Source: a bacterium | Lineage (GTDB): Bacteria > Bacillota > Clostridia > UBA1381 | DNA length: 35,172 nucleotides | Reading direction: 5' to 3' | Assembly: GCA_030536655.1 (NCBI GenBank) | Contig: JAUNPN010000017.1 | Location: 1 to 35,172 of the forward strand | Shown: positions 151 to 35,172 of the stretch, one piece after another | Layout: each line of letters opens with the position of its first letter | Position numbering within the stretch: the stretch's first letter is position 1 | Notes under the pieces: generated by a model | What the model was told of the DNA's origin: nothing | The model's database searches: none | What the model saw: the letters and a program-made list of their open reading frames with translations, nothing else | Translations under genes and position numbers: made by a program

Positions 151-1926
151 ATGGATTTATACGGATTTTATACCGGTACAATATTTAATGCCTACGAGTA
201 TCTCGGAGTACATAGACAGGGAGAAGGCTTTATATTCAGAGTATTTGCTCCGAATGCGGAAAGAGTAACGCTGATTGGAGATTTTAATGGTATGAACGAA
301 TACCAAATGAACAGAGTAAATGACGGAAGCTTTCATGAGCTGTATATTGGCAATGCGGAGCCGGGGATGAGATATTATTTCAGAATTTATAATAAGAGCG
401 GAGGATATACTGACCATTGTGATATTTACGGCTGCGGAATGGAGCTGCGTCCCGGTTTTAAATCGGTAATAAGGGATTTAAACGATTATAAATTTCATGA
501 TGATGAGTGGCTCAGGCACAGGACAGACTGCCGCAGTAAGCCGCTTAATATTTATGAGATGCATATGGGTTCATGGCGGAGAAAGCCGGACGGGAGTTGG
601 TACAGCTATGACGAAATTGCTGACGAGCTTATATCATATGTGAAGGAAACGGGGTATAATTATATAGAATTTCTGCCGCTGAGCGAGCATCCGTGCGATG
701 AGTCATGGGGATATCAGAATACAGGCTTTTTCGCTCCGACGTCGCGTTACGGAACAGCGTCTCAGCTTATGCAGCTTATAGATAAATGTCATCAAAACAA
801 TATCGGAGTTATAATGGATTTTGTGCCTGTGCATTTTGCGGTAGACAGCTATGGTATAGGTATGTATGACGGGACTGTTTTGTATGAGTATCCGCACGTG
901 GATGTGGGTGTAAGCGAATGGGGGAGCAGCAATTTTATGCATTCCCGAGGAGAGGTAAGAAGTTTTTTGCAGTCCTGCGCGTATTACTGGCTTAAGGAAT
1001 TTCATTTTGACGGAATAAGAATGGATGCGGTAAGCCGTATAATTTACTGGCAGGGAGATGAAGCACGCGGGGTGAACGGGTGCGGCGTGGATTTTGTGAA
1101 GTTTATGAACGAAGGAATAAAGGAGCGTATGCCCGATTGTATTCTGATAGCAGAGGATTCAACCAATTATCCGAATGTGACAAAGCCCGTTGCCGAAGGC
1201 GGTCTTGGCTTTGACTATAAGTGGGATATGGGGTTTATGAATGATACGCTTAACTATTTCAGAACTGCTCCGGAATACAGAACGGAAAATTATCATAAGC
1301 TTACATTTTCTATGATGTATTACTATAATGAAAATTATCTTCTTCCGTTTTCTCATGATGAAAACGTGCACGGCAAGGCAACAATTATGCAGAAAATGAG
1401 CGGTGAGTATGAGGATAAATTTCCTCAGGCAAGAGCGATGTATTTATATATGTATATGCATCCGGGCAAAAAGCTGAATTTTATGGGCAGTGAAATAGGA
1501 CAGCTGCGTGAATGGGATGAAAAGCGCGGGCAGGATTGGGATATATTGAGGTATCCTAAGCATGACGGATTTTTCGTCTTTATGAAGGAGCTGAACAGGA
1601 TATATCTCGGTTGCCGTGCGATGTATGAGGGTGATTATTCCGCGGATGGCTTTTCGTGGATTGACTGCGATAACACTGAAAACTGTATTTATGCGCTGGA
1701 ACGAAGAAGCAAAAAAGAAAGGCTTGCCGCAGTATTTAATTTCAGCGATACTGAAAAGGAGTATGTGCTTGAAGGCGTAAAGGAGGCGGAAGTGGTGCTT
1801 CATACCGATTGGAAACGTTTTGGCGGGGAAACGGCAGAAAATACAAGGGTTTGTACAGATAATATATTGCTGCCAAGATTTTCCGGAGTTTTGTTTAAGG
1901 AATCACTGATTAATTATAGTTCTTAG
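151..1926 (+). CDS. glgB: 1,4-alpha-glucan branching enzyme (GH13)
   Basis: Predicted to cut alpha-1,4 glucan chains and rejoin them as alpha-1,6 branches during cytoplasmic glycogen synthesis. The 591-residue protein has a CBM48-like N-terminal domain (about 20-110), the branching-enzyme signature NIYEMHMGSW (133-142), and a GH13 barrel with nucleophile D292 in RMDAV, acid/base E335 in IAEDS and D403 in SHDENVHGK. It is shorter at the N-terminus than the E. coli enzyme, as in many Firmicutes. The start is set by a GGAGG ribosome site just upstream. No other glycogen genes adjoin it. The last nine or so codons (from KES onward) lie inside a mobile palindromic element, so the natural C-terminus has probably been replaced; the catalytic part is unaffected. 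Confidence 0.93.
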   Translation: MDLYGFYTGTIFNAYEYLGVHRQGEGFIFRVFAPNAERVTLIGDFNGMNEYQMNRVNDGSFHELYIGNAEPGMRYYFRIYNKSGGYTDHCDIYGCGMELRPGFKSVIRDLNDYKFHDDEWLRHRTDCRSKPLNIYEMHMGSWRRKPDGSWYSYDEIADELISYVKETGYNYIEFLPLSEHPCDESWGYQNTGFFAPTSRYGTASQLMQLIDKCHQNNIGVIMDFVPVHFAVDSYGIGMYDGTVLYEYPHVDVGVSEWGSSNFMHSRGEVRSFLQSCAYYWLKEFHFDGIRMDAVSRIIYWQGDEARGVNGCGVDFVKFMNEGIKERMPDCILIAEDSTNYPNVTKPVAEGGLGFDYKWDMGFMNDTLNYFRTAPEYRTENYHKLTFSMMYYYNENYLLPFSHDENVHGKATIMQKMSGEYEDKFPQARAMYLYMYMHPGKKLNFMGSEIGQLREWDEKRGQDWDILRYPKHDGFFVFMKELNRIYLGCRAMYEGDYSADGFSWIDCDNTENCIYALERRSKKERLAAVFNFSDTEKEYVLEGVKEAEVVLHTDWKRFGGETAENTRVCTDNILLPRFSGVLFKESLINYSS

Positions 1927-2073
1927 TGAACGCAGTCAGATTTTTCGTCAGATTATGCAAAAAGCTCGAAGGCATACTCGTGTATGTCTAGAGATTTTTG
2001 TATGATATGACGGAAAATATGCAAGTTCAATGCGTGCTAAGCCATTAGGCGTTAATTAATCAGTGGTTCCTTA
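1896..2073 (-). mobile_element. Family 1 palindromic MITE-like element, copy 1
   Basis: A 178-bp element bounded by inverted ends TAAGGAATCACTGATTAA and TTAATCAGTGGTTCCTTA. The interior is one long imperfect hairpin: the arm at about 1936-1976 pairs with about 1982-2022 around a CATAC/GTATG apex. It is reversed relative to the copies at 25085 and 35122. It has no coding capacity, so any movement would need a transposase in trans. Flanking TA dinucleotides fit a Tc1/mariner or IS630-type target, but that is inference. The left end lies inside the glgB reading frame and supplies its TAG stop. Confidence 0.8.
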
Positions 2074-11752: not shown

Positions 11753-11777
11753 AACACAAATGCCTGCTGTAAGTTAA

Positions 11778-12053
11778 GTTTGAAAAAAGATAAGCGGCGC
11801 ATCTCGCCGTCATTCGTGGCTTGAAGTACAGCGTACGACTGCGCCCCTCATAACGGCAATCTGCTTGCTTCTCTTTTCCCAAACGCATTGGTGAAAGGAG
11901 TTCGAATTATAAGTTTGGAAAAAGATAAGCGGCGCATCTTGCTGCCCTCAGCGACTTGAAGTATAAACATACGTCGGCATCGCTTCTGACGGCAATCTGT
12001 TTGCTTCTCTTTTCCCAAACGCATTGGTGGAAGGAGTTCAGATTATAAGTTTG
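11778..12053. repeat. Family 3 palindromic repeat, two tandem units
   Basis: Two tandem units of 135-136 bp start at 11778 and 11913, with a fragment of a third start at 12049. Each runs from GTTTG(G/A)AAAAAGATAAGC through an imperfect central hairpin (arms such as GCCGTCAT...ATAACGGC around AGTAC/GTAC) to GCTTCTCTTTTCCCAAAC. The two ends form imperfect inverted repeats. A constant linker of about 28 bp containing GCATTGGTG and AAGGAGTTC follows each unit. Middle sequences differ between units while keeping pairing, as in old mobile hairpin elements. No protein is encoded. This fills the 327-bp gap between the two flanking genes. Confidence 0.75.
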
Positions 12054-12623: not shown

Positions 12624-12657
12624 TTGTCAACCATAAAATAAAAATACGGGTTGACAA
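12624..12657. promoter_or_regulatory. BirA-type biotin operator
   Basis: TTGTCAACC (12624-12632) and GGTTGACAA (12649-12657) form a perfect 9-bp inverted repeat with a 16-bp spacer. That is the architecture known for BirA operators in Firmicutes. The right half includes the -35 element of bioY, so binding of biotinyl-AMP-loaded BirA would block transcription. Confidence 0.8.
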
Positions 12658-12679
12658 TAGGCGCGGAATATGATAAAAT
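12651..12679 (+). promoter_or_regulatory. Predicted bioY promoter
   Basis: TTGACA (12651-12656), 17-bp spacer, TAAAAT (12674-12679) preceded by TGA, an extended -10. The predicted start site near 12686 coincides with the left end of a mobile palindromic element. Confidence 0.75.
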
Positions 12680-12686
12680 GAAACTA

Positions 12687-12844
12687 TAGCTTATTTGTAA
12701 ATTAAGCGCCTCTTGCTTGCCGGTTTTCTGTCATATTGCCCCCAAAATCCTCGGCATACGCCGGTATATGGCGGTTTTTTGGAATAATCTGGAGAAAAAT
12801 CTGACTTTGCAATAGGCACTTCTTTAATTACGGATAGGTTCTAA
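12687..12844 (+). mobile_element. Family 2 palindromic MITE-like element forming the bioY leader
   Basis: About 158 bp with imperfect inverted ends (left TAGCTTATTTGTAAATTAAG; right, reversed, AGAACCTATCCGTAATTAAA). The interior (about 12729-12817) aligns with the family 1 core at about 25138-25228, sharing GTCATAT, an apex CATACGC..GTAT, ATAATCTG and GAAAAATCTGACT. It fills the space between the bioY promoter and its ribosome site, so the bioY mRNA would start with this hairpin. Confidence 0.75.
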
Positions 12845-12867: not shown

Positions 12868-13446
12868 ATGAACAAATCAATTAAATCAACAAGAGAACTT
12901 ACAAAAATGGCATTGCTTGCCGCGCTTCTGTGCGTGTCTGCGTACATAACGATTCCTATAGGTGAGGCACCTTTGACACTTCAAACCTTGCTTATTAATC
13001 TTATTGCGATAATACTTACACCGACAGAGGGTTTTTTGACAGTTTTGGTCTATGTGATTATAGGGGCAGTTGGAATTCCTGTATTTTCAGGAGGACAGGG
13101 AGGCTTGGGTAAGCTTTTCGGACCGACCGGAGGATATATTTTCGCATTTCTTGCGGCAGCTCCTGCAATGGCCTTTTCAAAAAAGTATTTTGCGGCGGCT
13201 TGCGGTAAATTTATAAAAAACAAGACAACTGCGGAAATTGTGGGATATACAGTTAATGCGGTAATTATTGGAATGGTAATTGTGTACGCTGTAGGAACTG
13301 TGTATATGAAGCTTATGTTAGGCAGAGGCTGGGGAGAGGTGCTGATGATGGCGGTGGTTCCGTTTATTCCTCTTGATATTGTGAAGTGTGCCGCGGCGGC
13401 GGTTATCGGTGTTCCGCTCAGAAAATCTCTGAATAGAATGAAATGA
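12868..13446 (+). CDS. bioY: BioY biotin transporter (ECF S component)
   Basis: The substrate-binding membrane component for biotin uptake, working with energy-coupling-factor subunits EcfT/A/A' encoded elsewhere, or possibly alone. The 192 residues carry the BioY pattern: ISIPIGEAPLTLQTL-like segment at about 28-42, GAVGIPVFSGGQGGLGKLFGPTGGY at about 62-86, and the terminal FIPLDIVKCAAAAVIGVPLRK. About six membrane helices are visible. The AAAAAGGAG ribosome site lies just beyond the family 2 element. A BirA-type operator over the promoter agrees with biotin control, and with the function call. Confidence 0.93.
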   Translation: MNKSIKSTRELTKMALLAALLCVSAYITIPIGEAPLTLQTLLINLIAIILTPTEGFLTVLVYVIIGAVGIPVFSGGQGGLGKLFGPTGGYIFAFLAAAPAMAFSKKYFAAACGKFIKNKTTAEIVGYTVNAVIIGMVIVYAVGTVYMKLMLGRGWGEVLMMAVVPFIPLDIVKCAAAAVIGVPLRKSLNRMK

Positions 13447-16844: not shown

Positions 16845-16907
16845 AGAGCCTATCCCTAAATTAAGCGAACCTTGCTTGCCGCACTTCTTTAATTACGTAT
16901 ATGCTCT
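16845..16907. mobile_element. Family 2 element, internally deleted copy
   Basis: A 63-bp remnant keeping both ends of family 2: AGAGCCTATCC..TAAATTAAGCG on the left, CTTCTTTAATTACGTATATG and CTCT on the right, and the shared segment CTTGCTTGCCG. The central hairpin is missing. It begins 3 bp after the TAA of the glycosyltransferase gene. Confidence 0.7.
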
Positions 16908-17368
16908 AAATACAATTGATGTATTTATGTTTATTCTTGGATTAGGCGAGTCAGGATATGTCGGGAATAATGGAAGAACACTCCAAAATACGGTATAATA
17001 TAAAGTATCATATTTAGATGACCTCACAGAAAACAGTATATATTTTATGGCAGGCTGTCAAACGGGGTTCAGAAAAGCGGCTATCGCAATTCTATGTGAT
17101 AGTCGCTTTTCATATGAATATGTCACGTTTTAAAAGTAAAAAAATAGCATAAAACCTATATATCCGGACGTTAAAACTTAGGGTGTAATGTATAGTGATA
17201 TTCCGACGTTTGAAATCGCTATTTTAACAGACCACGTAACGCCTAACGATCCATATAAATTACTTTTTAGTCAATAGTGGAATAGTAGAGATATTTGATA
17301 CCGTATAAAACATATACTTTCAAGGCTTAAAACTTAACAGACCGTATAGTGTCTTTCAAATCCTCAAG
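16908..17368. other. Non-coding gap downstream of the glycosyltransferase gene
   Basis: No credible gene is visible. The only clear structure is a long hairpin at 17072-17111. Two stretches around 17170 and 17320 share short words (TTAAAACTTA, GTATAGTG), which may be decayed repeat sequence but are too weak to classify. Confidence 0.45.
17072..17111 (+). terminator. Isolated long hairpin, possible terminator
   Basis: A 17-bp stem with two G-U pairs (17072-17088 with 17095-17111) and a 6-nt loop; A-tract and T-tract at the base. It is 230 bp downstream of the nearest + strand gene, so its partner transcript is uncertain. Confidence 0.5.
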
Positions 17369-17440
17369 GTTTGGAAAAAGACAAGCACCGCTTCTCTTTT
17401 CCCAAACGCATTGGTGAAAGGAGTTCGGATTATAAGTTTG
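17369..17440. repeat. Family 3 repeat, internally deleted copy
   Basis: It keeps the left end GTTTGGAAAAAGA, the right end CTTCTCTTTTCCCAAAC and the linker with GCATTGGTGAAAGGAGTTC seen in the tandem units at 11778-12053. The central hairpin is lost. It ends 24 bp beyond the stop codon of the BspA-like gene. Confidence 0.72.
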
Positions 17441-23695: not shown

Positions 23696-25087
23696 ATGAG
23701 AAATGAAGATAAGACAATGGACAAAATTGTAGCCCTCTGTAAGGGCAGAGGTTATGTTTTCGCCGGAAGTGAAATATACGGCGGTCTTGCAAATACATGG
23801 GATTACGGTCCTCTCGGTGTTGAGTTTAAGAACAATGTCAAGAAAGCATGGTGGAAAAAGTTTATTCAGGAATCAAAGTACAATGTGGGTATAGACTGCG
23901 CCATCCTCATGAACCCGGAAACATGGGTTGCATCGGGTCACGTAGGAAGCTTCTCAGACCCGTTAATGGACTGTAAGGAGTGTCATGCGCGTCACAGAGC
24001 CGATAAGCTTATTGAGGACTACGCTCATGAGAATAATGAGGATATAGTCGTTGACGGTTGGTCAAAGGATCAGATGGAAAGCTACATCAAGGATAACAAC
24101 ATTGTATGCCCGAAGTGCGGAAAGCAGAATTTTACTGAAATCAGAGAATTTAACCTTATGTTCAAGACTTTCCAGGGTGTAACGGAGGATAGCTCATCAA
24201 CAGTATATCTTCGTCCGGAAACTGCTCAGGGTATATTTGTAAACTTCAAAAATGTACAGCGTTCGTCAAGAAAAAAAGTTCCGTTCGGTATCGGTCAGGT
24301 TGGAAAATCATTCAGAAATGAGATTACGCCGGGAAACTTTACCTTCAGAACACGTGAGTTTGAGCAGATGGAACTTGAGTTCTTCTGCAAGCCGGGTACA
24401 GACCTTGAATGGCACGCTTACTGGAAGAAATATTGTATGGACTTCCTCTTAAGTCTCGGTATGAAAGAGGAAAATCTTCGTTTCAGAGATCATTCACCGG
24501 AGGAGCTTGCATTCTATTCAAATGCAACGGCAGATATAGAGTTTATGTTCCCGTTCGGCTGGGGTGAGCTTTGGGGTATCGCTGACAGAACGGATTACGA
24601 CTTAAAGCAGCATATGGATCACAGCGGTACAAGCATGGAATATCAGGATCCTATTACAAATGAGAAGTATGTTCCGTATTGTATCGAGCCTTCGCTCGGA
24701 GCAGACAGAGTTGCGCTTGCATTCTTAATCGAGGCATATGATGAGGAAACCTTGGATAACGGTGACAGCAGAGTTGTTCTTCATCTTCATCCGGCTCTTG
24801 CGCCGGTTAAGGCGGCGGTTCTTCCGCTTTCGAAAAAGCTTAATGATAAGGCTTCCGAAGTATATGAAATGCTTTCAAAGAAATATAACTGTGAGTATGA
24901 CGACGCCGGTTCAATCGGTAAGCGTTACCGCAGACAGGATGAAATCGGCACGCCGTTCTGTATCACATATGATTTCGATTCGGTTGAGGACAATGCTGTA
25001 ACAGTGCGTTTCAGAGATTCTATGGATCAGGAGAGAGTCGCGATAGATAAGCTTGATGAATTTCTTGCAGGTAAGCTTGAATTCTAA
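23696..25087 (+). CDS. glyS: Glycyl-tRNA synthetase, alpha2 type
   Basis: Charges tRNA-Gly; class II dimeric enzyme of the archaeal/eukaryotic-like bacterial type, distinct from the alpha2beta2 GlyQS form. The 463 residues include the N-terminal [19 protein letters not shown] segment (about 28-46), zinc-ligand pairs CKEC (about 92-95) and CPKC (about 139-142), motif 2 [28 protein letters not shown], motif 3 [13 protein letters not shown], and a C-terminal anticodon-binding domain (about 360-463). A GGAG ribosome site 10 nt upstream fixes the start. The TAA stop is itself the first three bases of a mobile palindromic element. Confidence 0.97.
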
Positions 25088-25261
25088 GGAACCACTGATT
25101 AATTAACGCCTAACGGCTTAGCACGCATTGAACTTGCATATTTTCCGTCATATCATACAAAAATCTCTCGACATACGCGAGTATGCCTTCGATCTTTTAT
25201 ATAATCTGACGAAAAATCTGACTGTGTTCACTGCGTACTATATTTAATCAGTGCTTCCTTA
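25085..25261 (+). mobile_element. Family 1 palindromic MITE-like element, copy 2
   Basis: A 177-bp copy in the opposite orientation to the one at 1896-2073, with ends TAAGGAACCACTGATTAA and TTAATCAGTGCTTCCTTA and a long hairpin around CATACGCGAGTATG. It spans the interval from the glyS stop codon to 34 bp before the mscL start. A promoter-like pair inside, TTGAAC and TATCAT with a 17-bp spacer (about 25123-25151), points toward mscL. Confidence 0.82.
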
Positions 25262-25294
25262 AAAATATATTGCAAAAGCGGAAGGAGAAACTCA

Positions 25295-35124: not shown

Positions 35125-35172
35125 GGAACCACTGATTAATTAACGCCTAACGGCTTAGCACGCATTGAACTT
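35122..35172 (+). mobile_element. Family 1 palindromic MITE-like element, copy 3 (cut by window end)
   Basis: The first 51 bp match the left end of the copy at 25085-25135 with no difference that I can see: TAAGGAACCACTGATTAA, then AACGCC, TAACGGCTTAGCACGC and TTGAACTT. The rest lies outside the window. Confidence 0.8.

What the first reader, a model, noticed from the sequence alone, without database searches (positions are those of the whole stretch)
12687..12844. Two element families with different ends share one hairpin core
The interior of the family 2 copy before bioY (about 12729-12817) aligns in order with the family 1 core (about 25138-25228): GTCATAT, CAAAATC, apex CATACGC and GTAT, ATAATCTG, GAAAAATCTGACT. 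The terminal repeats are unrelated in sequence. That suggests modular elements in which a conserved core hairpin is carried by different end sequences, and so possibly by different transposases. A conserved core across families hints that the core itself does something, for example as an RNA or protein-binding site.
Basis: seen in the sequence. Interest (0 to 1): 0.6.

Follow-up and report, generated by a model that had tools for sequence, protein, structure and literature searches.

The report
Mobile hairpin wearing swappable transposon ends
Two families of tiny jumping elements in this gut-type Clostridia genome share one folded hairpin body but carry unrelated ends used by different transposases, and the same hairpin recurs with yet other ends across many Clostridia, which suggests that the hairpin itself is kept for a purpose not yet known.

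Summary
The F2 copy before bioY (12687-12841) and the F1 copies (25088-25258; 1899-2070 reversed) share a ~112-nt imperfect-palindrome core. The interior alignment scores 83, against at most 49 in 4000 pair-shuffled palindromes; a model built only from F2 cores finds F1 cores at E~1e-9. The outer ~15 nt are unrelated. F1 ends (GGAA.CACTGATTAA) leave 4-bp TTAA-type duplications; F2 ends (GAGCCTATCCGTAA) leave 3-bp duplications and sit on remnants of an IS5_3-type transposase gene. So these are non-autonomous MITEs moved by one identified and one inferred IS5-family transposase. The core recurs in 64 of 391 Clostridia genomes sampled and 4 of 398 across the phylum, with further end types. Across families it covaries strongly: 91% of cells paired versus 78% shuffled, 31 of 43 pairs changed on both sides, 0/500 shuffles. 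It is strand-polar: one invariant U.G wobble, and the same strand more stable in 20 of 20. This argues that the folded strand matters, although flanking mRNAs carry the weaker strand more often (61 v 33). Function is not shown. Closest precedent: S. suis BOX elements, where two kinds of ends flank the same boxB module.

The parts
12687..12841 (+). F2 element (MITE with GAGCCTATCCGTAA-type ends) before bioY; left end degenerate
   Evidence: one of at least 40 F2 copies in the genome
12708..12819 (-). shared hairpin core in the F2 copy (stable strand is -)
   Evidence: R1 hit + 12708-12819; R2 hit - 12707-12821, E 7e-13
25088..25258 (+). F1 element (GGAA.CACTGATTAA ends); flanks CTAA (25084-25087) and TTAA (25259-25262)
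25124..25238 (-). shared hairpin core in the F1 copy (stable strand is -)
   Evidence: R1 hit E 2e-10; R2 hit E 2e-24
1899..2070 (-). second F1 element, reversed, TTAA duplication on both sides (1895-1898, 2071-2074)
1919..2034 (+). shared hairpin core in the second F1 element (stable strand is +)
   Evidence: R2 hit E 4e-26
35125..35172 (+). left end of a third F1 element, cut by the contig end
   Evidence: F1 ends lie at many contig ends of this genome
16847..16915 (+). F2 remnant that has both ends but has lost the core
12651..12679 (+). promoter-like site TTGACA-17-TAAAAT just upstream of the F2 element; the element fills the predicted bioY 5' leader
   Evidence: consensus match only
12868..13446 (+). 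bioY (biotin ECF transporter component), neighbour gene
   Evidence: PF02632, E 4e-37

Best explanation
F1 and F2 are non-autonomous MITEs of one superfamily. Their body is a ~112-nt imperfect palindrome inherited from a common ancestor; their outer ~15-17 bp are terminal repeats fitted to different IS5-family transposases. F2 ends belong to an IS5_3-type element (3-bp TNA duplication; remnants present here). F1 and related GG-ends are probably served by an IS5_4-type element (4-bp TTAA-type duplication; inferred). Ends are changed either by co-divergence with the transposase or by recombination inside the shared core when one element has inserted into another. The core is kept as a folded, strand-polar hairpin, so the most likely reading is that a single strand of it (RNA in a transcript, or single-stranded DNA at the lagging strand) is recognised by a host or transposition factor that is independent of the end type. 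Shown: homology, end types, duplications, IS5_3 link, covariation, strand polarity, nesting, one chimera. Inferred: F1 transposase, route of end exchange, and that the folded strand is recognised by something.
For: Homology beyond any shuffled palindrome and by covariance model. Ends unrelated. F1: 26 of 30 copies with identical 4-bp flanks, mostly TTAA (shuffled mean 17.3, max 23). F2: 17 of 26 with identical 3-bp flanks (shuffled mean 8.9, max 16). The F2 end stands at both ends of an interrupted gene that matches NF033580 (IS5_3). F1 sits inside F2 ends in 6 of 30 copies, and L148 joins an F1 end to an F2 core inside GATTTT(T/C)CGTCA. The same core occurs with ends GGCAACACCGCACAA, GGTAAGYRCYGATTAAATA, GGNAACCTCTAAA and others. 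Covariation over 20 members not chosen by sequence pattern: 91.1% paired v 78.1+-0.7, 31 of 43 pairs changed on both sides v 15.6, covariation 0.401 v 0.165, slid controls at most 0.102, 0/500. U.G 20/20 at one pair, G.A 28/28 at one internal mismatch, same strand more stable in 20/20.
Against: Copies within one genome (F2, mostly 74-84% alike) show little compensation (84.1% paired v 83.1+-0.4), so single insertions decay freely; constraint is visible only between lineages. Elements lacking the apex or the whole core exist (L158, L160, L161; window 16847-16915); they may be in-place deletions or may show that the core is not needed to move. Between co-directional genes the weak strand is in the mRNA more often (61 v 33, p 0.005). 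Palindromes can be homogenised by template switching, which mimics covariation. No autonomous F1 element was found.
Confidence: 0.72

Rival explanations
1. The core is a passive body kept only by descent. Compensatory changes come from quasi-palindrome correction (template switching between arms), and the strand bias from old chance mutations or strand-biased deamination. It has no function.
For: Weak compensation inside F2; palindrome-linked deletions and core-less copies exist; terminal repeats of one copy also seem to co-vary in L282-L291.
Against: Template switching would turn wobble and mismatch positions into perfect pairs, yet one U.G is invariant in 20/20 and one G.A in 28/28 across genera and end types; G.U exceeds A.C 145 to 40 in a strand-neutral count.
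Confidence: 0.25
2. The core is a cis-acting part of transposition that works with several IS5-type transposases, for example by bringing the two ends together as a hairpin on single-stranded DNA.
For: Conserved with every end type and in distant genera; hairpin also predicted with DNA parameters.
Against: IS5-family elements are generally taken to need only their ends (own knowledge); short F2 forms without the apex occur in several copies with the same junction.
Confidence: 0.2
3. The core acts as an mRNA element (stability, processing or termination) for neighbouring genes, as reported for ERIC and Correia elements.
For: Copies lie between genes and here fill the bioY leader; precedents with RNase III and RNase E (PMC10969869).
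Against: The strand that folds best is the less frequent one in mRNA (33 v 61), and no terminator-like site was found at the F1 copy.
Confidence: 0.12
4. Chance resemblance of AT-rich palindromes.
For: Both are AT-rich palindromes.
Against: 0 of 4000 pair-shuffled palindromes reach the score; covariance-model matches at E~1e-9; few matches across the phylum sample (4 of 398 genomes).
Confidence: 0.01

Closest known systems
BOX elements of Streptococcus suis and S. pneumoniae (Croucher et al. 2011, PMC3049150)
   Same: Small modular repeats with fold-back structure; in S. suis two kinds of ends (boxA/C and boxE/F) surround the same boxB modules.
   Different: There the shared boxB is an insertable middle module largely unpaired with the ends. 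Here the shared part is one long palindromic hairpin, the ends are short terminal repeats tied to IS5-type transposases with different target duplications, and the core is spread over a class rather than one genus.
ERIC/IRU and Correia (NEMIS) elements (PMC2229807; PMC10969869)
   Same: About 100-160 bp palindromic MITEs between genes; Correia elements have a length variant with an internal insert, as in the F2 long form.
   Different: One end type per family; no sequence relation was tested or is claimed; hosts are Proteobacteria.
IS5-family MITEs (ends matched to a resident insertion sequence)
   Same: F2 ends match an IS5_3 element in the same genome; target duplications of 3 and 4 bp.
   Different: The body shows no sign of deriving from the insertion sequence and is shared by unrelated ends.

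Membership tests
MITE | short, non-coding, terminal inverted repeats, multi-copy | tested here: met
   about 155-172 bp with inverted ends, multi-copy
MITE | target-site duplication | tested here: met
   4 bp for F1 and 3 bp for F2, both above shuffled flanks
MITE | F2 ends match an autonomous element | tested here: met
   IS5_3 remnants with the same ends
MITE | F1 ends match an autonomous element | tested here: inconclusive
   No F1-ended transposase in held sequence; nearest is an IS5_4 element with GGCAACCTCTAAAAACC ends, whose end type does carry the core in L277
IS5 family mobilisation | transposition demonstrated in trans | not testable with these tools
   needs an assay
BOX | boxA/boxB/boxC sequence modules | not tested
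   compared only by description
Known Rfam RNA family | covariance-model match | tested here: not met
   no match in the window at gathering scores; relaxed search of 14 loci gives no credible match at the core
Intrinsic terminator | GC-rich stem followed by a T run at the element | tested here: inconclusive
   one weak site inside the F2 copy, none at the F1 copy

The most novel reading that the evidence does not exclude
A class-wide, selected structured hairpin (an RNA or single-stranded DNA motif) that is itself the conserved unit and has been passed between different transposon end types, so that the body rather than the transposase end defines the mobile family.
Probability: 0.35. Interest if true: 0.8.

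Novelty: new variant of a known kind. Interest (0 to 1): 0.6.

Why it matters
MITEs are usually classified by their ends and their bodies are treated as filler. Here the body outlives changes of ends and transposase and is kept as a structure with strand polarity across a bacterial class. That makes a testable case for a function of the MITE interior and gives a natural set of end swaps for asking what IS5-type transposases really need. The elements also break assemblies (many contigs of this genome begin or end in F1), which matters for gut metagenomics.

Tried and rejected
Chance similarity: rejected by pair-preserving shuffles. Known RNA: no Rfam family. Autonomous F1 or F3 element: paired ends 0.6-2.6 kb apart in all held loci enclose ordinary genes, no transposase recognised among those inspected. 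First RNA model with RNAalifold on the weaker strand gave only 5 pairs; the opposite strand explains it. Maintenance of single F2 copies: little sign. Stable-strand mRNA role: orientation count points the other way. Match in G186 (L283) judged a terminator, not a member. Literature search found no description of these elements in Ruminococcus or Ruminococcaceae, within an open-access library only. A strand-neutral count over more distant members was weak (88 v 65), so strand polarity is claimed mainly for the closer set.

Full report
What was claimed.

Check of the observation. The F1 copy lies at 25088-25258 with flanks CTAA/TTAA. A second, reversed copy lies at 1899-2070 with perfect TTAA flanks, and a third is cut by the contig end at 35125. 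The F2 copy lies at 12687-12841, and a core-less F2 remnant at 16847-16915. The two interiors align on the same strand (score 89 against 50 reversed). Without terminal repeats the score is 83. Shuffles that keep each hairpin's pairs and composition give mean 22-24 and maximum 49, 0 of 4000 reaching it. A model of 24 F2 cores finds F1 cores at 67-70 bits, E 2e-10 to 6e-10 in the window. The first 16 nt are unrelated. F1 and the later-found F3 are alike from about nt 19 inwards (ACGCCTAACGGCTTAGCAC against ACGCCTGACGGCTTTGCAC), so the change is confined to the terminal repeat itself.

Copy number. In the window's genome (3.49 Mb, 266 contigs) at least 40 F1 copies are mostly 97-99% alike and at least 40 F2 copies are mostly 74-84% alike to the window copy (only 40 candidates are scored). 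The F1 end pattern occurs 222 times, against 0 for the reversed control, often at contig ends. F1 therefore looks young and F2 old. F2 has a long form with two extra small hairpins (GATGACTTGC..GCAAGTCAT, GGTGAGCTGTTTACAGCTCACC) and a short form without the apex.

Ends and transposases. F1 copies have identical 4-bp flanks in 26 of 30, TTAA in most (shuffled mean 17.3, max 23). F2 copies have identical 3-bp flanks (mostly TTA or TAA) in 17 of 26 (shuffled mean 8.9, max 16). The F2 end stands at the start of a gene fragment with DUF4096 on C120 and at the end of a DDE fragment on C139; both match NF033580 (IS5_3), and both run into the same third sequence, apparently another inserted element. 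The genome also has an IS5_4-type element with ends GGCAACCTCTAAAAACC and an ATAA duplication; this end type carries the core in another genus (L277). No transposase with F1 or F3 ends was found.

Nesting and chimeras. Six of 30 F1 copies sit in or against the TTAA-bearing ends of F2 copies. F2 makes up roughly half a percent of the genome by my estimate from copy number, so this is a strong excess. L148 (C203) joins an F1 end to a long F2 core within GATTTT(T/C)CGTCA; the joint rests on so few shared bases that an assembly error is unlikely but not excluded. This shows a possible route, not proof, by which ends could be exchanged through the core.

Spread. Relatives of the same family carry F2 ends (G006, 25 core matches counting both strands; one of its contigs has the length of a contig of the water-deer MAG RGIG9115) or F1-type ends (G008, G014). 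A second model built from 28 members hits 21 of 95 genomes of the order, 64 of 391 of the class and 4 of 398 of the phylum sample; the last includes the window's own genome and one false positive. Class-level hits carry F1, F3, GGTAAGYRCYGATTAAATA and GGGAACCTCTAAA ends. More distant hits have still other ends, such as GAGCCTGTTTAGTATC, AGAGCGTGTTCACAT and AGCAGTGGAGAGCCGAAC; these lie at weaker E-values and I treat them as probable, not certain. F3-like copies also occur on Subdoligranulum plasmids and in unannotated gut phage records.

Structure. Over 28 members from different end types 92.5% of cells pair against 82.2+-0.6 shuffled, 25 of 42 pairs change on both sides against 13.8, none of 500 shuffles reaches this, and slid controls stay at or below 0.101 against 0.344. 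Because most F3 members of that set were found by an exact pattern, I repeated the count on 20 members found without it: 91.1% against 78.1+-0.7, 31 of 43 pairs against 15.6, covariation 0.401 against 0.165, slid at most 0.102. Structures were taken from the consensus, which favours the unslid version on the percentage paired above all. Related sequences can exceed such shuffles for reasons of descent, but the slid controls keep relatedness and stay far below.

Strand polarity. On one strand the arms' mismatches are G.U, on the other A.C: 144 against 21 cells in the structure, 145 against 40 when internal mismatches are included, 49 against 11 in F1/F2 rows alone. One U.G is invariant (20/20) and one G.A mismatch too (28/28; one side of it lies in the pattern used to find F3 members). 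The same strand folds more stably in 20 of 20. Template switching between arms, the usual non-selective source of covariation in palindromes, would remove such positions. More distant members give a weaker bias (88 v 65). Single F2 copies in the genome show almost no compensation. The constraint therefore appears to act on lineages that keep moving, not on individual insertions.

What the core does. If the stable strand worked as an mRNA hairpin, copies between co-directional genes should have it in the transcript. The opposite holds, 33 against 61 (p 0.005 over all sets), most clearly for F1 (5 v 17). Genes were called simply as long open frames. Either strong hairpins in mRNA are purged, or the polarity was shaped to soften the hairpin in mRNA, or the relevant strand acts elsewhere (single-stranded DNA in replication, or a separate transcript). 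I commit to a recognised folded strand as most likely, at modest confidence, with passive descent as the main rival.

Known systems. The idea that different ends can flank one middle module has a clear precedent in S. suis BOX elements. ERIC and Correia elements are similar in size and fold, and Correia elements have an insert-bearing variant. No Rfam family matches the core, and I found no description of these elements in the open-access library. I therefore class this as a new variant of a known kind.

Noticed in passing
window 12624-12679: Inverted repeat TTGTCAACC-N16-GGTTGACAA overlaps a strong promoter-like site (TTGACA-17-TAAAAT) directly before the F2 copy. It looks like a BirA operator (from memory of the motif), so the F2 element would be the leader of a biotin-regulated bioY transcript.
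   Followed up: partly
window 11775-12053 and 17357-17440; L162: Another repeat (GGCAATCTGCTTGCTTCTCTTTTCCCAAACGCATTGGTGAAAGGAGTT) occurs three times in the window and is fused to half an F2 element in L162.
   Followed up: no
L053, L128-L142 and others: F2 long form: an extra module of two small perfect hairpins inserted in the right arm; some shorter copies keep a remnant (L036, L040), so loss of the module is common.
   Followed up: partly
L266, L259, L276, L278: Larger elements of other Clostridia families carry a second match to the core directly adjacent on the opposite strand (inverted pair).
   Followed up: no
plasmids OY725839, OY725847, OY725857, OY725879; phage records MT835489, MT835572 and others: F3-type elements sit on Subdoligranulum plasmids and on unannotated gut phage contigs, possible vehicles between species.
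   Followed up: no
whole genome G000: Many contigs begin or end within an F1 element, so this repeat fragments the assembly.
   Followed up: partly
L263, L264, L269: Related hairpin with similar flanking sequence in three genomes of one genus, apparently at the same locus; may be an old fixed copy worth testing for function.
   Followed up: no
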